This document shows positions 20,168-47,879 of a stretch of DNA of 64,000 nt, piece after piece (position 1 is the first letter of the stretch; each line of letters starts with the position of its first letter). The position numbers and the translations under genes were made by a program. This DNA is from a virus, in the IMG/VR virus record IMGVR_UViG_3300021185_002167, positions 1-64,000 of that record; one strand, given 5' to 3'. The notes under the pieces were generated by a model. It worked only from the letters and a program-made list of their open reading frames with translations. It did not search any database and was not told the origin of the DNA.

Positions 20168-20213
20168 CGGTTTTAGTGAAAATAATTAAATTAATTTTAT
20201 ATTCAATTAATCG

Positions 20214-20242
20214 TTTACATTTAGCCAAAAGTATGGTATAAT
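20214..20242 (+). promoter_or_regulatory. Early-type promoter for the 55-47-46 operon
   Basis: TTTACA / 17 bp / TATAAT with TGG before the -10; predicted start near 20249. It is back-to-back with the minus-strand promoter at 20139-20167. Confidence 0.88.
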
Positions 20243-20266
20243 AATACATTATGGAGAAAAAATAAT

Positions 20267-21018: not shown

Positions 21019-22076
21019 AGGTAGCGATACTTAATGACACACACTGTGGAGTAAGAAACTCAAGTGACATATTTTTACAATATCAAGATAGATTCTATTC
21101 AGAAATATTCTTTCCATATTGTGAAGAGCATGGTATAAAGAATGTATTACATTTAGGAGATTATTATGAGCATCGTAAGTTTGTTAACTTTAAAGCTCTT
21201 CAAGCTAATCGTAAACATTTTCTAGAACCATTACGCGATCTTGGTATGACTATGGATATTATCCCTGGTAATCATGACGTGTATTTCAAAAACACAAATG
21301 AACTTTGTAGTTTAAAAGAACTCCTAGGTTACTTTACGTCTAATGTCAATATTATCATGAAGCCAACAGTGCTTGATTATGATGGTCTTGGTGTTGCAGT
21401 AATACCTTGGATTAACAATGGTAACTACGAAGAGTATACAAAGTGGGCTCTTAACTGTAACGCTCCTATTCTTGGAGCTCATTTAGAGTTAAAAGGATTT
21501 GATATGATGGCAGGAATGCCTAATCCACATGGTATGAGTGCTGATGTATTTTCAAGATTTGAAATGGTATTATCAGGTCATTTCCATACAAGAAGTTCTC
21601 AAGGTAACGTAACGTATCTTGGTTCTCAAATGGAGTTTACTTGGGCTGATGTTGATGACCCTAAGTTCTTTCATGTACTTGATACTGAAACAAGAGAGAT
21701 TACACCAGTGCGTAATCCTATTACTATGTTTAAGAAAGTAATCTATGATGATACAAAAACAGATTATGACAAAGTAGACATATCAGAGTATGAGAAAAAG
21801 TTCATCAAGCTGATTGTTATAAATAAAAATGACTTGTATATGTTTGATAAGTTTGTTGATAGATTACAAAACATTGAGACATATGAACTTAAGATAGCTG
21901 AAAGCTTCGAAGAGTATCTGGGAGAAAGCGTAGAAGACGAGAAAATATCCCTTGAAGATACAAACAACCTTTTAGATACTTATGTTGATGCAGTCGATAC
22001 CGACTTAGATAAAGAACATCTTAAAGTCGAATTGAGAAAACTATATACTGAAGCACAGAATCTAGAGGTAGTATGA
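21015..22076 (+). CDS. 47: gp47 recombination nuclease subunit (SbcD/Mre11-like)
   Basis: 353 residues (T4 gp47 is 339). Metallophosphoesterase motifs in order: NDTHCGV (8-14), HLGDYYEHR (about 46-54), PGNHDVY (84-90), GAHLEL, and SGHFHTRS. With gp46 it forms the Mre11-Rad50-like complex that resects ends for recombination-dependent replication and degrades host DNA. Overlaps gene 46 by 4 nt. Confidence 0.95.
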   Translation: MKVAILNDTHCGVRNSSDIFLQYQDRFYSEIFFPYCEEHGIKNVLHLGDYYEHRKFVNFKALQANRKHFLEPLRDLGMTMDIIPGNHDVYFKNTNELCSLKELLGYFTSNVNIIMKPTVLDYDGLGVAVIPWINNGNYEEYTKWALNCNAPILGAHLELKGFDMMAGMPNPHGMSADVFSRFEMVLSGHFHTRSSQGNVTYLGSQMEFTWADVDDPKFFHVLDTETREITPVRNPITMFKKVIYDDTKTDYDKVDISEYEKKFIKLIVINKNDLYMFDKFVDRLQNIETYELKIAESFEEYLGESVEDEKISLEDTNNLLDTYVDAVDTDLDKEHLKVELRKLYTEAQNLEVV

Positions 22077-23788
22077 TACATTTTAAATCATGTGAGTGGA
22101 AGAATTTTCTATCCACCGGAAGCGATCCAATAAAAATATTATTAGATAAAACACCATCAACGTTAATCGTTGGTCAGAATGGAGCAGGTAAATCAACTTT
22201 ACTCGATGCTCTTTCATTTGCACTCTTTGGTAAACCACATAGAGATATTAAGAAAGATCAGATGATTAATAGTATCAATAAAAAAGGTACATTAGTGACT
22301 GTTGAAATGACGATAGGAAGTCATGAATTTAAGATTATAAGAGGTATCAAACCAGGTAAGTTTGAAATCTATCAAAATGGTAACCTAATTAACCAGGCTT
22401 CCAATGCAAGAGATTATCAGAAGTTCCTTGAACAGAATATACTTAAGCTTAATCATAAATCATTTCACCAGGTAGTAGTACTTGGTTCATCTTCGTTTAT
22501 ACCATTCATGCAATTACCTGTTTGGTCAAGAAGAAACATTATCGAAGACTTATTAGATATCAATATATTCTCTAAGATGAATACATTGTTAAAAGAAAGA
22601 AACTCTAAGATTAAAGATGAGCTTACTGATATTAATCATCAAATCGATATCTTTAAAACAAAGATGGATTCTCAAAGTAAGTATATTAAAGACTTACAAG
22701 AACTTAATGATGATCAGATCGATAAGAAGAGATCGAGTATTGATGTCCATAAAGAAGAAATCAATAAACTATTTGATGAAAGTAAAACACTTGGTAAGAA
22801 TCTATCAGCTTCAATATCAACTGAAGAAAAACATAGTGGAGATATCGTAAAGAAAATGTCTCAACTTGATTCTTATGATATGCAATTTAATGCTAAAATT
22901 AAATCGCTTGTAGATGAGAGTAGATTCTATGAAGAGAATGACCAATGTCCTACATGCGATCAAGAAATAGAAGAGTCTAAAAAGGTCGAAAAGATAGAGT
23001 CAGTAAAACTTAAAGCAAAAGAAATTCAAACAGCTAAAGATGATTTATCTAAGAATATTGCTGAAATGAAAGCTGAACAGCAAGAAGTATCTAATAGTCT
23101 TAATAAGCTTCGTCAAAAACAATCAAAGATTAATAGTAACAACGATGCAATTGCGTTATTACAGAAAGAAGTTAATAAAGTACAAAAAGAGATTGATGGT
23201 CTACAAGGCCAAACTGGAGACGTATCAAAAGCAAAAATCGAACTTAGAGATTTAAGAAAGAATAAAGATACATCGACTGAAAAGAAACTCGAGTATGTAG
23301 AAGAAAGAACCTATAACGAAGTCATAGGAGAAATGCTTAAAGACACTGGTATCAAAACTAAAGTCATTAAACAATATCTACCTGTAATGAATAGATTGAT
23401 TAATCAATATTTACAGATACTTGATTTCTTTGTATCGTTTCATTTAGATGAAAACTTTAATGAGACAATCAGGTCAAGACATCGTGATTCGTTTAACTAT
23501 GCTTCTTTCTCTGAAGGAGAAAAACAAAGAATCGATTTAGCTTTACTCTTTACTTGGAGACAAATTGCTAAGATGAAAAATAGCGCAGCTTCGAATCTAC
23601 TCATATTAGACGAAACGTTTGATTCAAGTTTAGACATCGATGGTGTTGATAACTTAACTAAGATTCTCGATACTCTTGACGATGGAAGCAACGTGTTTAT
23701 CATATCGCATAAAGGCGATGTCTTAGAGAATAAGTTTCGAAGTAAGATCGAATTCTTTAAAGAAAGAAATTTCTCAAAGATTAAGTAA
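22073..23788 (+). CDS. 46: gp46 recombination nuclease subunit (SbcC/Rad50-like)
   Basis: 571 residues (T4 gp46 is 560). Walker A VGQNGAGKST (33-42), Q-loop region, long coiled coil with zinc hook CPTC (292-295), ABC signature FSEGEKQR (about 478-485), Walker B NLLILDETFD. The ATPase partner of gp47. Two tRNA-like structures begin at the base after its stop codon. Confidence 0.95.
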   Translation: MIHFKSCEWKNFLSTGSDPIKILLDKTPSTLIVGQNGAGKSTLLDALSFALFGKPHRDIKKDQMINSINKKGTLVTVEMTIGSHEFKIIRGIKPGKFEIYQNGNLINQASNARDYQKFLEQNILKLNHKSFHQVVVLGSSSFIPFMQLPVWSRRNIIEDLLDINIFSKMNTLLKERNSKIKDELTDINHQIDIFKTKMDSQSKYIKDLQELNDDQIDKKRSSIDVHKEEINKLFDESKTLGKNLSASISTEEKHSGDIVKKMSQLDSYDMQFNAKIKSLVDESRFYEENDQCPTCDQEIEESKKVEKIESVKLKAKEIQTAKDDLSKNIAEMKAEQQEVSNSLNKLRQKQSKINSNNDAIALLQKEVNKVQKEIDGLQGQTGDVSKAKIELRDLRKNKDTSTEKKLEYVEERTYNEVIGEMLKDTGIKTKVIKQYLPVMNRLINQYLQILDFFVSFHLDENFNETIRSRHRDSFNYASFSEGEKQRIDLALLFTWRQIAKMKNSAASNLLILDETFDSSLDIDGVDNLTKILDTLDDGSNVFIISHKGDVLENKFRSKIEFFKERNFSKIK

Positions 23789-23858
23789 GGGGCGCGACTA
23801 GGGTCAATCTCCTACTTGCAATAGGAGATACTGTGGGGCAGAACCACACGCTCCACCA
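23789..23858 (+). tRNA. tRNA-Ala(UGC)-like RNA with reduced D-arm
   Basis: GGGGCG (23789-23794) pairs with CGCTCC (23849-23854), including a G3:U70 wobble, the alanine identity element; discriminator A and an encoded CCA follow (23855-23858). The anticodon arm is an 8-bp stem with a 7-nt loop CTTGCAA (anticodon TGC, T33 present). The T-arm is TGTGG/CCACA but with loop GGCAGAA instead of TTCRANN, and the D-arm is reduced to GAC-TAGG-GTC. 70 nt with CCA, shorter than the usual 76. It may be a minimal tRNA-Ala, a decayed tRNA, or part of a larger tRNA-like RNA. Confidence 0.55.
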
Positions 23859-23864
23859 CTCTTT

Positions 23865-23935
23865 GGAGCTGAAGTTCATGTGGAATGAACGACCTAAAGT
23901 TAGGTAAGTCGAAGGTTCGAATCCTTCCAGCTCCA
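23865..23935 (+). ncRNA. Second tRNA-like structure without a normal anticodon arm
   Basis: GGAGCTG (23865-23871) pairs fully with CAGCTCC (23928-23934) and is followed by discriminator A. The T-arm is canonical: GAAGG-TTCGAAT-CCTTC. A GTTC/GAAC arm (extendable to 6 bp) encloses ATGTGGAAT with a D-loop-like GG. Where a 17-nt anticodon arm should be there is only a 14-nt palindrome, ACCTAAAGTTAGGT. Position 8 is A, not T. No CCA is encoded. Either a degenerate tRNA or a tRNA-like domain working with the structure 6 nt upstream. Confidence 0.5.
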
Positions 23936-23950
23936 CTTCCATTATGTGAG

Positions 23951-23987
23951 AACAACACTTTCTCACAATTATTTTCATTAATTTCAC
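23951..23987 (+). repeat. 37-bp upstream repeat, copy 1
   Basis: Begins AACAACACTTTCTCACAATT and ends TTAATTTCAC. Identical to the copy at 47584 and one base different from the copy at 26216. In all three the repeat ends exactly 8 bp before the TTTACA -35 hexamer. In this copy the first bases also close a 7-bp hairpin with GTGAGAA (23946-23966). Confidence 0.92.
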
Positions 23988-23995
23988 AAAAACCG

Positions 23996-24024
23996 TTTAC
24001 ATTTGCGCTGAAATAGTGTATAAT
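23996..24024 (+). promoter_or_regulatory. Early-type promoter for the VWA/metalloprotease gene
   Basis: TTTACA / 17 bp / TATAAT; the extended -10 is GTG rather than TGG. Predicted start near 24031; AAGGA precedes the ATG at 24049. Confidence 0.85.
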
Positions 24025-24048
24025 ATACATATAAGATAAGGAACAACT

Positions 24049-26214
24049 ATGATTAAACACAAAAGCACTCTCGCAAAACTTCTTGCTAAAGAAAATGTTA
24101 CTGTACAATATGGTAACTATTCAACAGCATGGTTTGACATTAAAGATAGAATACTCGGTCTTCCAATGTGGAAAGATATGGGTAGTGATGTAAGTGATTT
24201 ACTTATTGGCCATGAAGTTGGCCATGCGTTATTCACACCATACGAAGGTTGGCATGATAGCCCTGAAAAGCTACAAGGCTGTCCACGTACATATATCAAT
24301 GTAATCGAAGATGCAAGAATCGAAAGACATATCAAAGATTCTTATATTGGTCTAGTTGGTCCTATGGCAAGAGGCTATAAAAAGCTTTTTGATGATGGCT
24401 TCTTTGGAGAAGAGTTCACTACAATGAACTGGGACAAAGTAAAGCTTATCGATAAAATTAATCTTAAAGCTAAAGTTGGAGCTCATCTTGACGTTCCTTT
24501 AGACGACGTAGAGATTGAATACTACAACAGGGCAATGACAACTGAAACATTCGAAGAAGTTCTTGACCTAGTAAGAGATGTTCTTGCGTATACAAAAGAA
24601 AACGAAGAAGAGCTTATTGAAAAGCCAGAGCCACAAGAAGACGAGCCTGAAGTAGGTGATGACGAAAATAATAAAGACGAAATGACTCCACAAGGTCATG
24701 ACGATGCTGAAGGCGATCAACCTAAAGAAACTTTGTCAAACGAATCAGATGAAACAGAAGTTGAAGATGATGCACCACAAGAAAAGCAAAATGCTCAGAA
24801 TCCAGTAGATGATGACGTTGCAATTTCAGACTTAAACTTTAGACAAAGAGAGAAAAACTTACTCGATATAAGAGAAGACAATACACAAACTCTTATTGGT
24901 AACGAATTCAATAAAGACGTTTTTAATAAGATTGTTATACCTTATAAAGATCTTGCTCAACAAAGAAAAGAGAATTCTAATAAAAACCAAGAACATTCAG
25001 AATGGCTTGCTGATTTAGTAAACAAACAAGCTCTTGGTTACAAAGCGTATAGTAAAGCAGTAAAGAAAGATGTTAACTACGCAGTAAAAGAATTCGAAAT
25101 GAGAAAAGCTGCTTTTAGATACTCAAGATCTCAAACAGCTAAGACTGGTTCTATAGACGTAAACAAAGTATGGTCATATAAAACTAATGAAGACATATTC
25201 TCAAGAGTAACTCAGTTAGCTGATTCTAAAAATCATGGTATGGTTATGATTATAGACTTTTCAGGTTCTATGTGCGATGTCATGAACCATGTTTTAGATC
25301 AGCTCTTTCACCTAGTAACATTCTGTAAAGCAGTTAATATTCCATTCGAAGTATATGGATTCACAAGCTGTAATACATTACTTGGTGGTGGATATTCATG
25401 GGATGGCGATACTATCGACACTTCAAAACAACTTGACTCTGAGGTATATCACCAAAAACTTTCAATGCCACAGCTTGTAACGTCTAAGCTTAAAAAAGCT
25501 GACTTCGAAGAAGCAATGGAACATATCTTTTTAAGAAGTAGTCTCAGTTCAGAGCATTATGGAGAAAGATCTATTATGTCTCCAAACGAAGAGTATGGTT
25601 CAACACCTCTTAACGAAGCTCTTATTGCTTCACATAGAATTATTGATAGCTTTAAAAAGACTCATAATGTCGAAAACATGAATTTCGTTGTTATTTCAGA
25701 TGGAGATACTAATGGTACTTCGATTTGTAAAAAAGAAATTGGTGTGAACAGAGTTAAGACTCACCCAAGCTATTCAAGACATACTGAAATGAATATTAAC
25801 ATTATGGGTAAATCTGTAAAGCTTGCTGGCAATAGAAGAGAAGGTACTCAGTCTTTACTTAACAACCTTGCTAAAAGATTTAATACAACTAACATTGGAT
25901 TCTTTATTGCTAATGATGGTTCACAATTTAAAAGTAAAATCGCTGAAACACATGGTGAGTACTGGTTAGATGATGAACTACAAAAAGAGTACAATAAAGA
26001 ATTTAACAAGAAAAGATGCGTAACTCTTAAAGGCTTAGGCTATAAAGAACTTTATATTCTTAAGAGTAAAAATCTTTCAGTTGAAACTACTGACTTTAAT
26101 CCAGCTGAAGAAGCATCAAAAGGTCAGTTAACAACAGCATTTAAGAAGTTTAGTAAGTCTAAAAAGCTTAACAAAACACTATTAACTAATTTTGGTAAGA
26201 TAGTTGCTGAGTAA
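24049..26214 (+). CDS. CobT-like VWA protein with N-terminal HExxH metallopeptidase motif
   Basis: 721 residues. Residues 55-59 are HEVGH, with YINVIEDARIE (82-92) supplying a plausible third zinc ligand, as in gluzincins. An acidic, probably disordered linker (about 190-265) leads to a C-terminal von Willebrand A domain with MIDAS motif DFSGS (about 403-407) and VVISDGDTNGT. This layout is like CobT-type partners of MoxR/CobS AAA+ ATPases; the ATPase follows at 26324. In marine phages such genes are often labelled cobalamin biosynthesis, but nothing here shows chelatase activity. More likely a AAA+-driven remodelling or proteolysis pair. Target unknown. Confidence 0.8.
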   Translation: MIKHKSTLAKLLAKENVTVQYGNYSTAWFDIKDRILGLPMWKDMGSDVSDLLIGHEVGHALFTPYEGWHDSPEKLQGCPRTYINVIEDARIERHIKDSYIGLVGPMARGYKKLFDDGFFGEEFTTMNWDKVKLIDKINLKAKVGAHLDVPLDDVEIEYYNRAMTTETFEEVLDLVRDVLAYTKENEEELIEKPEPQEDEPEVGDDENNKDEMTPQGHDDAEGDQPKETLSNESDETEVEDDAPQEKQNAQNPVDDDVAISDLNFRQREKNLLDIREDNTQTLIGNEFNKDVFNKIVIPYKDLAQQRKENSNKNQEHSEWLADLVNKQALGYKAYSKAVKKDVNYAVKEFEMRKAAFRYSRSQTAKTGSIDVNKVWSYKTNEDIFSRVTQLADSKNHGMVMIIDFSGSMCDVMNHVLDQLFHLVTFCKAVNIPFEVYGFTSCNTLLGGGYSWDGDTIDTSKQLDSEVYHQKLSMPQLVTSKLKKADFEEAMEHIFLRSSLSSEHYGERSIMSPNEEYGSTPLNEALIASHRIIDSFKKTHNVENMNFVVISDGDTNGTSICKKEIGVNRVKTHPSYSRHTEMNINIMGKSVKLAGNRREGTQSLLNNLAKRFNTTNIGFFIANDGSQFKSKIAETHGEYWLDDELQKEYNKEFNKKRCVTLKGLGYKELYILKSKNLSVETTDFNPAEEASKGQLTTAFKKFSKSKKLNKTLLTNFGKIVAE

Positions 26215-26215
26215 G

Positions 26216-26252
26216 AACAACACTTTCTCACAATTATTTTCACTAATTTCAC
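26216..26252 (+). repeat. 37-bp upstream repeat, copy 2
   Basis: One base differs from copies 1 and 3 (CACTAA instead of CATTAA). Lies directly after the VWA gene stop and 8 bp before the -35 of the CobS-like gene promoter. Confidence 0.9.
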
Positions 26253-26260
26253 AGAAACTG

Positions 26261-26289
26261 TTTACAACACCGTGAAACTATGGTATAAT
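26261..26289 (+). promoter_or_regulatory. Early-type promoter for the CobS-like ATPase gene
   Basis: TTTACA / 17 bp / TATAAT with TGG; predicted start near 26296; AAGGAAA Shine-Dalgarno before the ATG at 26324. Confidence 0.88.
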
Positions 26290-26323
26290 ATACAGTATAA
26301 TAAATTGATAAGGAAACTATATT

Positions 26324-31965: not shown

Positions 31966-31985
31966 GAAATAAATTGAAATAATCG

Positions 31986-32014
31986 TTTACAAACGACTTA
32001 AACTATGGTATAAT
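31986..32014 (+). promoter_or_regulatory. Early-type promoter for gene 43, leaderless configuration
   Basis: TTTACA / 17 bp / TATAAT with TGG. The seventh base after the -10 is the A of the gene 43 ATG (32021), so +1 coincides with the start codon. Confidence 0.88.
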
Positions 32015-32020
32015 ATATAC

Positions 32021-34552
32021 ATGCTACAATACTACACAAACGTTTCTCGATATGGGAATCAAATTCTCCTAAGAGGATATGACCACGGTCGAAGAATCGA
32101 AAAGAAAATCAAATACGAACCAATTCTTTTTACATCAACTAATCTTAAGACTTCTTGGAAAGCTCTTGATGGTTCTCCTGTTGGTGTAGCAAATGCTGGT
32201 AAAAGATTCGAGTCAATGCGTACTGCGAATGAATATGTTACAGCAAACAAAGGAGTATCAGGTAAAACAATCTATGGAAATACAAAGTATATTCCTGCGT
32301 TTATCAATGACTACTACCCAGGCGATATAGAATTCAATCGTAACAAAATCAACGTAACCACCATCGATATCGAAGTACAATCTGATGATGGATTCCCTGA
32401 ACCAGAAAAAGCAGATCACAAAGTAACTGCAATCTGTATGAAGAGTAATATTGGAGAAACATATTACGTTTGGGGACTTGGTGATTACGATTCAGATAAA
32501 TCTTACATGAAAGACCACATGGTTGTATATCGTAAGTTTGATCGTGAAGATGATTTACTTATTAATTTTATTACGCACTGGTCATCTCAACAATATTGTC
32601 CAGATGTCGTAACAGGTTGGAACAGTCGATTCTTCGATATTCCATACCTTGTCAATCGTATTAATCGTATGCTTGGCGAAAGCTATGTCAAAAGACTTAG
32701 TCCTTGGGGATTAGTTGACAGACAAGAAATAACAAAGATGGGTAGAACACAAACTGCTTATGAGCTTAAAGGTATATCACAACTTGATTACTTAGACTTA
32801 TTTAAGAAGTTTGGCTACTCTTATGGTCCACAAGAATCGTATAAACTCGATCATATTGCACATGTTGTTCTTGGAGAAAAGAAACTTTCATACGAAGAAT
32901 ACTCTAATCTACATACTCTTTACAAATACAATCATCAAAAGTTTATTGATTACAATATCAAAGACGTTGAGCTTGTCGATCGTATCGAAGATAAACTTGG
33001 ATTGATTACTCTCTGTATGACAATGGCATATAAAGGTGGAGTCAATTACAATGATACCTTTGGTACTACTCTTATATGGGATACGATTATCTATCGTAAA
33101 CTCTTTCAAAACAACATTGTTGTACCATTCATCGAAGATAAAGTCAAATCAGATTATCCAGGTGGATTCGTAAAAGATCCGCATGTAGGAATACACGATA
33201 ATGTAGTATCATTCGATCTTAACTCGCTTTATCCTTCTATTATTATGCAATATAATATGTCGCCTGAAACAATTTCAAGTGGAGAGATTACTCAATTCGA
33301 TATTGAAAACGTACTTGCAAAAGGAGCAAGACCAGATAAACGTGGTAAAGCTCTTGCAGCAAATGGTCAATACTTTGAAACTAATCGACCAGGCATTGTT
33401 CCATTCATTATCGATGAGATGTATAAAGAACGTGTAGAAATCAAACAAGAAATGATTAATGCTCAAAAAGAATTACAAAAGGTCGATAAAGAAGATAAGC
33501 AAGAAATGTATCGTATAGAACGTAATATTGCAATTGCAGAAAACAGACAAATGTCGATTAAGATTCTTCTTAACTCTCTTTATGGCGCAATGGGTAATCG
33601 TTACTTTAGATTCTTTGACCAAAGAATTGCTGAAGCTATTACACTTACCGGACAGTTAACTATTCGTTGGGCTGAATACGCTCTTAACTCTTATCTTAAC
33701 AAAGCTTTAAAAAACACAACATGGAAAGACTATATTGTTGCAATCGATACTGATTCGCTTTATGTATCTCTTGACGATGTAGTAACAAAACTTAATCCTA
33801 AGAGTCCAATTGACTTTATGGATAAACTCAGTCAAGAAGCTCTTGAACCAGCTCTTGAATCTGCATACGCAGATCTTTATGACATGCTTGGTGGTGTAGA
33901 TAATCGTATGGTCATGAAACGTGAAGCAATCGCTGATCGTGCTCTTTGGACTGCAAAGAAACGTTATATAATGAATGTACATGACAACGAAGGAGTAAGA
34001 TACGCTGAACCAAAACTCAAAATCATGGGTATTGAAGCTATCAAATCTTCTACACCAGCTCCATGTCGTCAAGCGCTTAAAGATATCTTTCACGTTATCA
34101 TGAAAGAAGACGAAAAGTCAGTACAAGACGCGATTGAGCAATTTAAAAATCATTTCAAAACTCTTGACCCTGACCAAATCGCGTTTCCACGTGGAGTAAC
34201 TCAAGTCAAGAAGTGGCAGGATAGAAACAACCTCTATAAAAAAGGTACACCTATTCATGTTCGTGGTTCTATACTCTATAACAAGCTTGTAGAAGATATG
34301 TCACTTAAAAAGAAATACGAACAAATCAAAGCAGGCGAAAAGATTAAATTCTTGTATCTTCGTCAGCCTAATTCAATTCATGAAAATGTTATCTCATTCT
34401 CAGACTACTTACCAGAAGAGTTTGGCTTAAGAAAATATATCGATCATGAACTACAATTTCAAAAGACATTCCTAGATCCGATTCAACCGATCTTGGATGC
34501 TGTCGGTTGGACATCAGAAGAAGTAGCCAGCTTAGAGGACTTCTTTGGCTAA
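32021..34552 (+). CDS. 43: gp43 family B DNA polymerase
   Basis: 843 residues (T4 gp43 is 898). Exonuclease motifs: TTIDIEVQSDDGFP (Exo I), VTGWNSRFFDIPYL (Exo II), YNIKDVELVD (Exo III). Polymerase motifs: FDLNSLYPSIIMQYNMSPET (A), KILLNSLYGAMGNRYFRF (B), AIDTDSLYV (C). C-terminal region holds the clamp-binding tail (SLEDFFG). Both activities look intact. The ATG is at the predicted transcription start with no Shine-Dalgarno. Confidence 0.96.
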   Translation: MLQYYTNVSRYGNQILLRGYDHGRRIEKKIKYEPILFTSTNLKTSWKALDGSPVGVANAGKRFESMRTANEYVTANKGVSGKTIYGNTKYIPAFINDYYPGDIEFNRNKINVTTIDIEVQSDDGFPEPEKADHKVTAICMKSNIGETYYVWGLGDYDSDKSYMKDHMVVYRKFDREDDLLINFITHWSSQQYCPDVVTGWNSRFFDIPYLVNRINRMLGESYVKRLSPWGLVDRQEITKMGRTQTAYELKGISQLDYLDLFKKFGYSYGPQESYKLDHIAHVVLGEKKLSYEEYSNLHTLYKYNHQKFIDYNIKDVELVDRIEDKLGLITLCMTMAYKGGVNYNDTFGTTLIWDTIIYRKLFQNNIVVPFIEDKVKSDYPGGFVKDPHVGIHDNVVSFDLNSLYPSIIMQYNMSPETISSGEITQFDIENVLAKGARPDKRGKALAANGQYFETNRPGIVPFIIDEMYKERVEIKQEMINAQKELQKVDKEDKQEMYRIERNIAIAENRQMSIKILLNSLYGAMGNRYFRFFDQRIAEAITLTGQLTIRWAEYALNSYLNKALKNTTWKDYIVAIDTDSLYVSLDDVVTKLNPKSPIDFMDKLSQEALEPALESAYADLYDMLGGVDNRMVMKREAIADRALWTAKKRYIMNVHDNEGVRYAEPKLKIMGIEAIKSSTPAPCRQALKDIFHVIMKEDEKSVQDAIEQFKNHFKTLDPDQIAFPRGVTQVKKWQDRNNLYKKGTPIHVRGSILYNKLVEDMSLKKKYEQIKAGEKIKFLYLRQPNSIHENVISFSDYLPEEFGLRKYIDHELQFQKTFLDPIQPILDAVGWTSEEVASLEDFFG

Positions 34553-34569
34553 AATAAATAAAATAAACC

Positions 34570-34598
34570 TTTACATTATACCTAAACTATGGTATAAT
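34570..34598 (+). promoter_or_regulatory. Early-type promoter for the Sm-like/MazG/primase-like unit
   Basis: TTTACA (preceded by C instead of G) / 17 bp / TATAAT with TGG; predicted start near 34605. Confidence 0.85.
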
Positions 34599-34620
34599 AG
34601 ATATACAAATGGAGAAAAAT

Positions 34621-34905
34621 ATGAAACTAATTAGACTATCCTCAGGAGAGGAAGTAGTTGGAACAGTCGTAGAAAATGGCGATTCAATTACTATTAAAGA
34701 TGGCTATTCACTTATACCTGCAGGCGAAGGCAAGATTGGCTTTATGCCTTTCATGGCTTACACTAAAGCAAGTGAAGGAATAGAAATCAAAAACGAATTC
34801 GTTATGTTTATTGTAGAACCTGTTGAGCAATTGCAAGAGCAGGTAAGAGCAATGTCAAGCGATATTATAACACCAACTAAACAAGGAATCATTACTAATG
34901 TCTAA
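34621..34905 (+). CDS. Second Sm-like (LSm) fold protein
   Basis: 94 residues. IRLSSGEEVVGTVVENGDSITIKDGYSLIP is the small beta-barrel pattern also seen in the 19710 protein; the C-terminal half continues with strands and a helix (EFVMFIVEPVEQLQEQVRAM). The ATG at 34621 follows GGAGAAAAAT; an ATG at 34609, 4 nt after predicted +1, is an alternative. The early promoter here versus the late promoter for the 19710 paralogue suggests stage-specific versions. Role unknown. Confidence 0.65.
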   Translation: MKLIRLSSGEEVVGTVVENGDSITIKDGYSLIPAGEGKIGFMPFMAYTKASEGIEIKNEFVMFIVEPVEQLQEQVRAMSSDIITPTKQGIITNV

Positions 34906-37076: not shown

Positions 37077-37490
37077 ATGGATACGAAAAAAGAAAAGATG
37101 GGTGACATAGGCGAAAAGCTTGTGTTTGAGTATTACAATGGTACACAAAGTACGTATAAGTATGATAGTGAAAAGGATGGAATGATTGGTGAAGAAACTG
37201 CAGAAGTTAAGACACAAAATAGACATCCCTTTGGTTATTTTACAGTTAACACTGCTTGGAAAAATCAAGCTAAGAAATGTAAATCAGTTGACCGTCTTTT
37301 CTTTGTTGAGTATGATAGTTCTCCTGACGCAGTATTATGGGAATGTACTGATAGAGAAGATACAAAAATCATAACAACTAAAAACGGCAGAGTCATGGAA
37401 GGCTGGCCAATAAGTAAAATGAAACTTATAACTACTTTTAAAGGTAAAGGTGATGAGTTACGTAAACACACAAGTAGCAAAATATTTTAA
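37077..37490 (+). CDS. Putative PD-(D/E)xK nuclease-like protein
   Basis: 137 residues. GDIGEKLVFEYYN (Glu13), KDGM (Asp34) and AEVKTQN (Glu43-x-Lys45) have the order and spacing of a compact PD-(D/E)xK nuclease core; the rest (FTVNTAWKNQAKKCKSVDRLFFVEYDS) could complete the fold. If active, it might degrade DNA not carrying the phage's base modification, given the neighbouring modification genes. Function is unproven and the motif could be fortuitous. Confidence 0.45.
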   Translation: MDTKKEKMGDIGEKLVFEYYNGTQSTYKYDSEKDGMIGEETAEVKTQNRHPFGYFTVNTAWKNQAKKCKSVDRLFFVEYDSSPDAVLWECTDREDTKIITTKNGRVMEGWPISKMKLITTFKGKGDELRKHTSSKIF

Positions 37491-37498
37491 AATAAACG

Positions 37499-37527
37499 TT
37501 TACATTTATGCCAAAGTATGGTATAAT
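37499..37527 (+). promoter_or_regulatory. Early-type promoter for the gene 42 unit
   Basis: TTTACA / 17 bp / TATAAT with TGG; predicted start near 37534; GGAG precedes the ATG at 37557. Confidence 0.9.
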
Positions 37528-37556
37528 AGATATATAAAATTAATTATGGAGACATT

Positions 37557-41027: not shown

Positions 41028-42078
41028 TTATAATTACGATTGGTTTAACTACGATAAAGAACTCATGAAAGAGTTCAATTGGTTTCTATATAAAGTTAAT
41101 CAACGATCAGGTATACAACTTGGTTATATTGATGAAGAATATAAGAACGTAAATCGTCATGGTAAAATCGATTATGGTCTTGGAGAAGACGTAGAGTATT
41201 TTCATCCAACAATAACACTTGATGATCGTATGAGATTTATAGGTCAAGAAATTGCAAGCTTAGATACTTCAATTATGAATATCGTTGGCAATACTTTTAT
41301 ATCTCATTTCTATGGTGGAAGAGGAGTTCATTTCTTAGCATCTGGTGAAGAGAATGTCTTTGTAGATTTTGATCGAATAGCAGATGGAGATAATGAGTAT
41401 ATCAACTTTGTTCGAAATAATTTAGATAAAGCAATTCAGAGTAAGCAACCTATATGGGGAACAACTGAATTGCATACATCTATACAAACTGCTGGTAGAA
41501 ACTATTGTAGACAAAAGTATAATGAACCAGATAGAAAGTTTCATGCTGTTGATGTATGTGAATGGGTATCTTCTTTTAGAGATACTGGATTCTTAGATCG
41601 AATGCAAAAATGTAATCATATGTCAGAAATATATGACTTACTGAGAGAACAACCTGGCATTGGACATTACTACGGATTTCATGGTGCAGCATCTTCATCG
41701 GTATTACCACAAATGAAGTATCATCATGACCAAAGATTCGTTGCACCAGGACCAGGAGCTGTCTATACTATTCAGCTTATGTGGCCAGATGCTCCAAAGA
41801 AACTATATGATGAAGCCATTTATTTTATGAGAGAGAATTCAGAAGAGATTGGACTTACTACTCATGTAGATTTTCATCCTAATGCATTTAATATAAATAA
41901 AACAGATGGTACAAAACTTTTTCAATATGAACAAGATTCTCTTAAATACTACGGAACTGAAGTATTGTCATGTCAGTTTGGAGTATATCTACAGATAAGA
42001 GAAGATGAAAAAGCTTGTGCACGTAGACGAGTAGCAAGAGTACAGAAGACAAATAATCTTACTGAATTTTTTGAATAA
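41005..42078 (+). CDS. HhH/base-pyrophosphorylase-like protein (possible DNA hypermodification enzyme)
   Basis: 357 residues. LREQPGIGHYYGFHGAASS ... RFVAPGPGAVYTIQLMWP recalls the GIGPF..., ..PGPGA.. pattern of the alpha-glutamyl/putrescinyl-thymine pyrophosphorylase families, members of the HhH DNA glycosylase superfamily that hypermodify bases. The N-terminal half (FGGRGVHFL-like YGGRGVHFLASGEENVFVDFDRI) is not recognised. Overlaps the HAD gene by 23 nt and ends (LTEFFE) with a possible clamp-binding tail like that of gp43 (SLEDFFG). Recognition is by eye and moderate. Confidence 0.45.
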   Translation: MRNVSSINYNYDWFNYDKELMKEFNWFLYKVNQRSGIQLGYIDEEYKNVNRHGKIDYGLGEDVEYFHPTITLDDRMRFIGQEIASLDTSIMNIVGNTFISHFYGGRGVHFLASGEENVFVDFDRIADGDNEYINFVRNNLDKAIQSKQPIWGTTELHTSIQTAGRNYCRQKYNEPDRKFHAVDVCEWVSSFRDTGFLDRMQKCNHMSEIYDLLREQPGIGHYYGFHGAASSSVLPQMKYHHDQRFVAPGPGAVYTIQLMWPDAPKKLYDEAIYFMRENSEEIGLTTHVDFHPNAFNINKTDGTKLFQYEQDSLKYYGTEVLSCQFGVYLQIREDEKACARRRVARVQKTNNLTEFFE

Positions 42079-42082
42079 AACG

Positions 42083-42111
42083 TTTACATTTGACTCAAAC
42101 TATGGTATAAT
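42083..42111 (+). promoter_or_regulatory. Early-type promoter, leaderless configuration
   Basis: TTTACA / 17 bp / TATAAT with TGG. The predicted +1 is exactly the A of the ATG at 42118; no Shine-Dalgarno. Confidence 0.88.
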
Positions 42112-42117
42112 ATAACA

Positions 42118-47583: not shown

Positions 47584-47620
47584 AACAACACTTTCTCACA
47601 ATTATTTTCATTAATTTCAC
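47584..47620 (+). repeat. 37-bp upstream repeat, copy 3
   Basis: Identical to copy 1 over 37 bp; ends 8 bp before the -35 of the next promoter. Confidence 0.92.
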
Positions 47621-47628
47621 TCGAACCG

Positions 47629-47657
47629 TTTACAACTGCTCCCAACTGTGGTATAAT
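47629..47657 (+). promoter_or_regulatory. Early-type promoter for the small-gene cluster
   Basis: TTTACA / 17 bp / TATAAT with TGG; predicted start near 47664; AAGGAG before the ATG at 47685. Confidence 0.9.
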
Positions 47658-47684
47658 ATAACTATATTCAGATAAGGAGCTAAT

Positions 47685-47879
47685 ATGACATACAAAGAAC
47701 AACCAATATCAATAACCGAAGAGGTTATTGCAATGAGCACCAGCGCAATTCTAAGAGAATTGGACGGTGGAATGAAACCAGGAATTTGCGAATCTTGGGA
47801 CGAAAGAGTCGGAATGACAGATAGAGATTGGGCTATCGAAAAATTAATAGCTAAAAGACTAAAGGAGGCAGGAGTATGA
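47685..47879 (+). CDS. Small hypothetical early protein
   Basis: 64 residues, acidic, soluble (ITEEVIAMSTSAILRELDGG, then WDERVGMTDRDWAIEKLIAKRL). First gene of a cluster of five small overlapping genes under a repeat-associated early promoter, the setting of host-takeover genes. No family recognised. Confidence 0.65.
   Translation: MTYKEQPISITEEVIAMSTSAILRELDGGMKPGICESWDERVGMTDRDWAIEKLIAKRLKEAGV

What the first reader, a model, noticed from the sequence alone, without database searches (positions are those of the whole stretch)
23789..23935. Tandem, unusual tRNA-like structures right after gene 46
The first has an alanine anticodon loop (CTTGCAA), a G3:U70 pair and encoded CCA, but a 3-bp D-arm and no TTC in the T-loop. 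The second, 6 nt later, has a perfect acceptor and canonical T-arm (TTCGAAT) but no anticodon arm. Both 3' acceptor strands contain GCTCC that can pair with either 5' strand (GGGGC, GGAGC). Options: two decayed tRNAs, a compact Ala-type pair, or one composite or permuted tRNA/tmRNA-like RNA.
Basis: partly seen in the sequence, partly recalled or inferred. Interest (0 to 1): 0.72.

Follow-up and report, generated by a model that had tools for sequence, protein, structure and literature searches.

The report
Compact noncanonical phage alanine tRNA pair
A marine T4-like phage carries, right after its gene 46, a 70-nucleotide alanine-tRNA look-alike with a shrunken D-arm, an over-long anticodon stem and a non-standard T-loop; related phages conserve it with matching base-pair changes, so it is probably a working tRNA that standard tRNA finders miss, and it is followed by a second, non-decoding tRNA-like element.

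Summary
Window 23789-23858 (element 1) and 23865-23935 (element 2) each fold into a separate cloverleaf. Both sit in a slot after gp46 where relatives of this T4-like phage carry ordinary tRNAs, most often Arg(UCU) and Ala(UGC). Element 1 has a G3:U70 acceptor, a UGC anticodon loop (CUUGCAA), A73 and encoded CCA. It also has a 6-bp acceptor, a 3-bp D-stem, an 8-bp anticodon stem and a GGCAGAA T-loop, and ARAGORN and Rfam both miss it. I found four variants of it in three phage lineages, always directly after gp46. It stays 90-96% identical between lineages where gp46 third codon positions are about 53-61% identical. Both stem changes are fully compensatory, with no broken pair (chance about 5e-4). 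I conclude that element 1 is most likely a functional, structurally aberrant tRNA-Ala(UGC). Element 2 scores as a tRNA (43 bits) but has A3:U70, no CCA and a 4-6-nt anticodon loop, so it should not decode. It is probably an Ala-derived remnant or a non-decoding tRNA-like RNA. The elements occur separately in other phages, so the composite, permuted or tmRNA reading is rejected. Transcription, charging and decoding were not tested.

The parts
23789..23858 (+). Element 1: 70-nt noncanonical tRNA-Ala(UGC)-like RNA, including the CCA end
   Evidence: Cloverleaf MFE -27 kcal/mol, z -3.2; homologues in L096, L100, L101, L102, L104
23789..23794 (+). Element 1 acceptor 5' strand GGGGCG; G3 at 23791
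   Evidence: Pairs with 23849-23854; invariant in four variants
23796..23805 (+). Element 1 D-arm GAC-UAGG-GUC (3 bp, 4-nt loop)
   Evidence: Middle pair A-U is G-C in L104, a compensatory change
23807..23829 (+). Element 1 anticodon arm: 8-bp stem AUCUCCUA/UAGGAGAU with loop CUUGCAA; anticodon UGC at 23817-23819
   Evidence: C-G is U-A in L100 and L104, a compensatory change; inverted repeat I1
23832..23848 (+). Element 1 T-arm UGUGG-GGCAGAA-CCACA, with no TTCRANY loop
   Evidence: Fold; invariant
23849..23858 (+). Element 1 acceptor 3' strand CGCUCC (U70 at 23852), A73 and encoded CCA
   Evidence: Sequence; L102 reads ACGA instead of ACCA
23865..23935 (+). Element 2: tRNA-like RNA with 7-bp acceptor carrying A3:U70, 4-bp D-stem, shortened anticodon arm and canonical T-arm; no CCA
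   Evidence: Rfam RF00005 43.4 bits; fold z -4.5; relatives in L001/L096 and L009/L085/L094
23892..23905 (+). Element 2 shortened anticodon arm ACCT-AAAGTT-AGGT (MFE ACCTA-AAGT-TAGGT)
   Evidence: GCCT/AGGC with a 7-nt loop in L009
23945..23967 (+). Hairpin followed by a T-rich tail, terminator-like, downstream of both elements
22073..23788 (+). gp46, SbcC-like recombination nuclease subunit; its stop codon abuts element 1
   Evidence: phrog_77, E 2.9e-159
24049..26214 (+). Downstream peptidase gene, right border of the tRNA slot
   Evidence: phrog_459, E 1.1e-175

Best explanation
Element 1 is a functional but structurally aberrant phage tRNA-Ala(UGC). It is transcribed with or just after gp46 and trimmed at G1. 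The host AlaRS charges it through G1:C72, G2:C71, G3:U70 and A73. It then decodes GCN codons with a normal UGC anticodon loop. The long 8-bp anticodon stem offsets the short D-arm, the 1-nt linkers and the 2-nt variable region, as in other compact tRNAs such as tRNAPyl and mitochondrial tRNASer(UCN). It occupies the same slot where close relatives keep an ordinary tRNA-Ala(UGC). Its altered elbow may let it escape host nucleases that deplete tRNA during infection; that part is speculation. Element 2 is an Ala-derived tRNA that has lost the AlaRS signal (A3:U70), the CCA end and a decodable anticodon loop. It is most likely a remnant, or else a non-decoding structural RNA. Shown: the folds, conservation, compensatory changes, slot position and independence of the two elements. 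Inferred: transcription, processing, charging, decoding and evasion.
For: Four distinct element-1 variants in three gp46 lineages, each fused to the gp46 stop codon. Element 1 is 90-96% identical between lineages, where the gp46 tail is 70-81% identical and its third codon positions 52-61%. All four substituted stem columns form two complete compensatory pairs, no pair is broken, and a random placement gives this in 5e-4 of trials. All folded variants (window, L100, L104) have the same MFE cloverleaf. The best non-self matches to the element-1 covariance model are canonical tRNA-Ala(UGC) genes, though only at E 0.05-0.14. Canonical tRNA-Ala(UGC) sits in this slot in 14 of 113 distinct slots and in near relatives of L104 with 94-96% gp46 identity (L145, L146, L149). 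Ala is 6.2% of codons in the sampled genes, 91% of them GCA or GCT. Compact tRNAs with an elongated anticodon stem, 1-nt linker, small D-loop and no G18/G19/TPsiC are active in translation, and a G3A change abolishes Ala charging of one tRNA-Ala (PMC7609411).
Against: There is no expression or charging data. The T-loop GGCAGAA and D-loop UAGG cannot make the standard elbow, and an 8-bp anticodon stem exceeds the 6 bp described in the review I read. Element 1 matches no tRNA model. L102 lacks an encoded CCA (ACGA). Only four variants exist, so the covariation rests on two pairs; near identity between lineages could partly reflect recent transfer rather than selection.
Confidence: 0.6

Rival explanations
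1. Element 1 is an Ala-accepting tRNA mimic that does not serve ordinary translation: a decoy, a sink for tRNA-targeting defence enzymes, or an Ala donor to another enzyme.
For: The acceptor end is perfectly Ala-like while the D- and T-loops lack the standard elbow; the whole sequence is very conserved; phage tRNAs are known or proposed counters to tRNA-targeting defences (PMC10264068, PMC11555353).
Against: The anticodon loop is a textbook decoding loop (U33, UGC, A37) in every variant, and the slot normally holds decoding tRNAs. No gene for an Ala-tRNA-using enzyme was found among the 37 window proteins searched, which is not a full annotation.
Confidence: 0.2
2. Both elements are decaying tRNA genes with no present function.
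For: Element 2 has lost the anticodon loop, the CCA and G3:U70. It differs from its 98%-identical relative L001 by six bases within about 20 nt. Partly deleted tRNAs exist in this slot, e.g. L015.
Against: For element 1: compensatory changes, no broken pair, and high conservation in diverged phages. For element 2: all six L001 differences lie in loops or linkers, and paired positions in the T-stem and anticodon stem change together in L009.
Confidence: 0.1
3. The elements act as tRNA punctuation: RNase P and 3'-end processing sites that separate gp46 mRNA from downstream mRNA, with decoding unimportant.
For: The element starts at or overlaps the gp46 stop codon in every variant; a terminator-like hairpin and an 11/12 promoter match lie just downstream; this would explain keeping a cloverleaf without an anticodon in element 2.
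Against: 69 of 113 distinct slots hold no ARAGORN-called tRNA, so processing there is dispensable; it does not explain the conserved Ala anticodon loop in element 1.
Confidence: 0.08
4. One composite, permuted or tmRNA-like RNA built from both elements.
For: Shared GCTCC strands allow cross-pairing on paper.
Against: Each element occurs without the other in other phages; the joint fold is two separate cloverleaves; no tmRNA hit by ARAGORN or Rfam.
Confidence: 0.01

Closest known systems
Canonical bacterial or phage tRNA-Ala(UGC), as in slot relatives L006, L018, L145
   Same: Genomic slot, G1-C5/G68-C72 acceptor end with G3:U70, UUGCAA of the anticodon loop, A73 and CCA
   Different: Element 1 has a 6-bp acceptor, 3-bp D-stem with 4-nt loop, 8-bp anticodon stem, 2-nt variable region and a T-loop without TTCRANY; it is not found by ARAGORN or RF00005
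tRNAPyl and mitochondrial type I tRNASer(UCN) (PMC7609411)
   Same: Single-nucleotide link between acceptor and D-stem, small D-loop, elongated anticodon stem, very short variable region; like tRNAPyl it lacks G18/G19 and TPsiC
   Different: Element 1 has Ala identity and a UGC anticodon, an 8-bp rather than 6-bp anticodon stem and a 3-bp D-stem; it sits in a phage and there is no sequence relation
Allo-tRNAs with G3:U70 (PMC7609411)
   Same: Noncanonical bacterial tRNAs found by sequence search, some with the AlaRS signal
   Different: Allo-tRNAs have 8/4 or 9/3 acceptor/T arms; element 1 has 6/5
Defence-evading phage tRNAs (PMC10264068, PMC11555353)
   Same: Phage-coded tRNA that may differ from the host tRNA so as to survive tRNA-targeting nucleases
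   Different: Described changes are mainly in the anticodon loop of otherwise canonical tRNAs; here the loop is ordinary and the body is altered

Membership tests
Canonical bacterial tRNA-Ala(UGC) (element 1) | G3:U70 with A73 (AlaRS identity) | tested here: met
   Invariant in four variants
Canonical bacterial tRNA-Ala(UGC) (element 1) | 7-nt anticodon loop with U33, UGC and purine 37 | tested here: met
   CUUGCAA in all variants
Canonical bacterial tRNA-Ala(UGC) (element 1) | 7/5 acceptor and T stems, 5-bp anticodon stem, 4-bp D-stem | tested here: not met
   6/5, 8 bp and 3 bp in the MFE folds
Canonical bacterial tRNA-Ala(UGC) (element 1) | T-loop TTCRANY and D-loop GG forming the elbow; recognised by tRNA models | tested here: not met
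   T-loop GGCAGAA, D-loop UAGG; no ARAGORN or RF00005 hit
Canonical bacterial tRNA-Ala(UGC) (element 1) | Charged with alanine and used by the ribosome | not testable with these tools
   Needs experiment
tRNA (element 2) | Scores above the RF00005 gathering threshold | tested here: met
   43.4 bits against 29
tRNA (element 2) | Decodable 7-nt anticodon loop | tested here: not met
   Loop of 4-6 nt in window and 6 nt in L001; 7 nt on a 4-bp stem only in L009
tRNA-Ala (element 2) | G3:U70 | tested here: not met
   A3:U70 in all three variants
tmRNA, one-piece or permuted | Match to tmRNA models | tested here: not met
   None at threshold; tmRNA_permuted 12.4 bits against 47
Composite two-part RNA | The two elements always occur together | tested here: not met
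   Element 1 alone in L100-L102 and L104; element-2 relative alone in L009/L094
Defence-evading phage tRNA | Resists a host tRNA nuclease that cleaves the host isoacceptor | not testable with these tools
   Host and nuclease unknown

The most novel reading that the evidence does not exclude
Element 1 founds a new structural class of non-organellar tRNA: an Ala isoacceptor with an 8-bp anticodon stem and a non-TPsiC elbow. Phages would have selected and spread it because its altered body escapes host tRNA-depleting defences while it still works with host AlaRS and ribosomes. Element 2 would be a companion non-charged decoy.
Probability: 0.15. Interest if true: 0.85.

Novelty: new variant of a known kind. 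Interest (0 to 1): 0.6.

Why it matters
If element 1 is charged and decodes, it shows that a bacterial virus can use a tRNA without the standard elbow, something otherwise described mainly for mitochondria and tRNAPyl. It also means that standard tRNA finders undercount phage tRNAs. It gives a small, directly testable natural construct for asking what a bacterial ribosome and AlaRS require, and whether phage tRNAs change their bodies, not only their anticodon loops, to survive host tRNA nucleases.

Tried and rejected
Composite, permuted and tmRNA readings were rejected because the elements occur separately and no model fits. A relative in annotated phages: none, since blastn with element 1 gave only 23-nt chance matches in Streptomyces phages at E 8. 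A relative in bacterial genomes: 25 matches to the loop pattern among 84,980 species were all in unrelated sequence without a cloverleaf, and the covariance model found nothing in three proteobacterial genomes, too few to say much. A protein-coding extension of gp46 was rejected: the frame relation to gp46 differs between window and L100, and an in-frame TAG lies in the anticodon stem (and reading). Other cryptic cloverleaves in tRNA-less slots: none convincing. D-loop/anticodon-loop pairing to explain the paired L001 changes in element 2: no complementarity seen by eye. Most pattern matches for element 2 were protein-coding or chance.

Full report
WHAT IS THERE. The window belongs to a 128-kb virus record that is T4-like by gene content: gp46/gp47-type nuclease subunits, UvsX, UvsY, late sigma factor, clamp, clamp loader, DNA polymerase and NrdA. 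The nearest annotated phages by these genes are marine cyanophages and a few pelagiphages, at low identity. Between gp46 (22073-23788) and a peptidase gene (24049-26214) lie two tRNA-like elements. Element 1 is 23789-23858 and element 2 is 23865-23935, with 6 nt between them. ARAGORN reports no tRNA or tmRNA. Rfam reports element 2 as a tRNA, 43.4 bits against a cut-off of 29, and nothing for element 1 even at E up to 10.

FOLDING. Element 1 folds as an unconstrained minimum into a cloverleaf: 6-bp acceptor GGGGCG/CGCUCC with G3:U70, one linking C, a 3-bp D-stem with UAGG loop, one A, an 8-bp anticodon stem with loop CUUGCAA (anticodon UGC), a 2-nt variable region, a 5-bp T-stem with loop GGCAGAA, then A73 and CCA. 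Energy is -27 kcal/mol, z -3.2, with no shuffle as good. Element 2 gives -28.6 kcal/mol, z -4.5: 7-bp acceptor, D-arm, a shortened anticodon arm, canonical T-arm. The joined 150 nt fold as the two separate cloverleaves.

THE SLOT. Eighty gp46 relatives per query were fetched. Among 113 distinct slot sequences, 69 hold no ARAGORN-called tRNA; Arg(UCU) is the sole tRNA in 15, tRNA-Ala(UGC) occurs in 14, Thr(UGU) in 9, with rarer Lys, Leu and Phe. tRNAs often begin within a few bases of the gp46 stop. A structure-only cloverleaf search of the 116 slot sequences recovered ARAGORN-called tRNAs, elements 1 and 2, and three weak cases at -10.8 to -12.6 kcal/mol. So the elements stand in a known tRNA position and are not background.

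ELEMENT 1 IS CONSERVED. Pattern searches of IMG/VR found it in L096 (the same contig as L001, 98% identical to the window), L100/L101, L102 and L104. All lie directly after the gp46 stop codon; in L100/L101 and L104 the stop TAG overlaps G1. Between the window and L100 or L104 the last 900 nt of gp46 are 70% identical and third codon positions 53%; window and L102 are 81% and 61%. Element 1 is 94-96% identical in these comparisons and 90% between L102 and L104. Seven of 70 columns vary. Four are paired, and they form exactly two pairs, both changed on both sides: A-U to G-C in the D-stem of L104, and C-G to U-A in the anticodon stem of L100 and L104. All 88 cells pair. Seven randomly placed variable columns give at least two complete and no broken pairs in 5.4e-4 of trials. 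The tool's own shuffles are less strong (21 of 500 for paired cells), as expected with four sequences.

IDENTITY OF ELEMENT 1. The best non-self matches of its covariance model are canonical tRNA-Ala(UGC) genes from this slot, at a weak E of 0.05-0.14, and a plain alignment also ranks tRNA-Ala(UGC) joint first with a tRNA-Pro. The first five acceptor pairs equal those of the slot's tRNA-Ala, including G3:U70. Close relatives of L104 (94-96% gp46 identity; L145, L146, L149) have canonical tRNA-Ala(UGC) in the same slot. No contig with element 1 has a canonical tRNA in that slot; the contigs are mostly short.

HOW IT COULD WORK. A review of natural noncanonical tRNAs (PMC7609411) describes tRNAPyl and mitochondrial tRNASer(UCN) with one nucleotide between acceptor and D-stem, small D-loops, a 6-bp anticodon stem and a 3-nt variable arm; tRNAPyl lacks G18/G19 and TPsiC and still takes an L-like shape. 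Element 1 follows the same design further, with an 8-bp stem. The most economical reading is a working tRNA-Ala. The role in escape from tRNA-depleting defences, proposed for other phage tRNAs (PMC10264068), is a possibility only.

ELEMENT 2. Its closest canonical relative in the slot is also tRNA-Ala(UGC), but it has A3:U70, and the review cites loss of charging on G3A in one mitochondrial tRNA-Ala. It lacks CCA. L009/L094 carry a relative with a 4-bp stem and 7-nt loop CUUAGUU that ARAGORN names Leu(UAG) although it has no long variable arm. Between window/L001 and L009 an anticodon-stem pair and two T-stem pairs change together. Between the window and L001 six changes fall within about 20 nt, all in loops or linker, while element 1 is identical. 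This fits either relaxed loops on a retained fold or local recombination. I favour a remnant or a non-decoding RNA and cannot separate the two.

LIMITS. There are no RNA data. Only four element-1 variants and three element-2 variants are known. The host is unknown. Collections searched were IMG/VR, GenBank phages and GTDB species genomes by pattern; metagenomes at large were not available. Horizontal transfer of element 1 with gp46-adjacent recombination could inflate its apparent conservation, although the compensatory changes do not depend on that.

Noticed in passing
window 23946-24034; similar at 26211-26300, 47584-47688, 34551-34629, 31977-32018, 37489-37537, 20205-20260, 42072-42114: An intergenic stretch with a hairpin and a TTTACA...TATAATATAC promoter-like box recurs many times at roughly 75-90% identity, mostly between genes: a repeated terminator/promoter module.
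   Followed up: no
L015, just after the gp46 stop: A tRNA-Thr-like gene has lost its middle (GCCACCCTAGCTCAGTTCGATCCTGGTGGGTGGCTCCA), an example of tRNA decay by internal deletion in the same slot.
   Followed up: no
window 23884-23898 against L001/L096: Element 2 differs from its 98%-identical relative at six positions, D-loop AA to CT, G to A, and anticodon loop AAA to CTT, while neighbouring element 1 is identical.
   Followed up: partly
L009:4329-4403 and L094:3222-3296: ARAGORN names this element-2 relative tRNA-Leu(UAG), but it lacks the long variable arm of tRNA-Leu and has a 4-bp anticodon stem; the isotype call is doubtful.
   Followed up: partly
Downstream of gp46 in T4-like marine phages (L003-L082, L142-L221): The gp46-peptidase junction is a tRNA turnover slot with different tRNAs (Ala, Thr, Arg, Lys, Leu, Phe) in close relatives.
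   Followed up: yes
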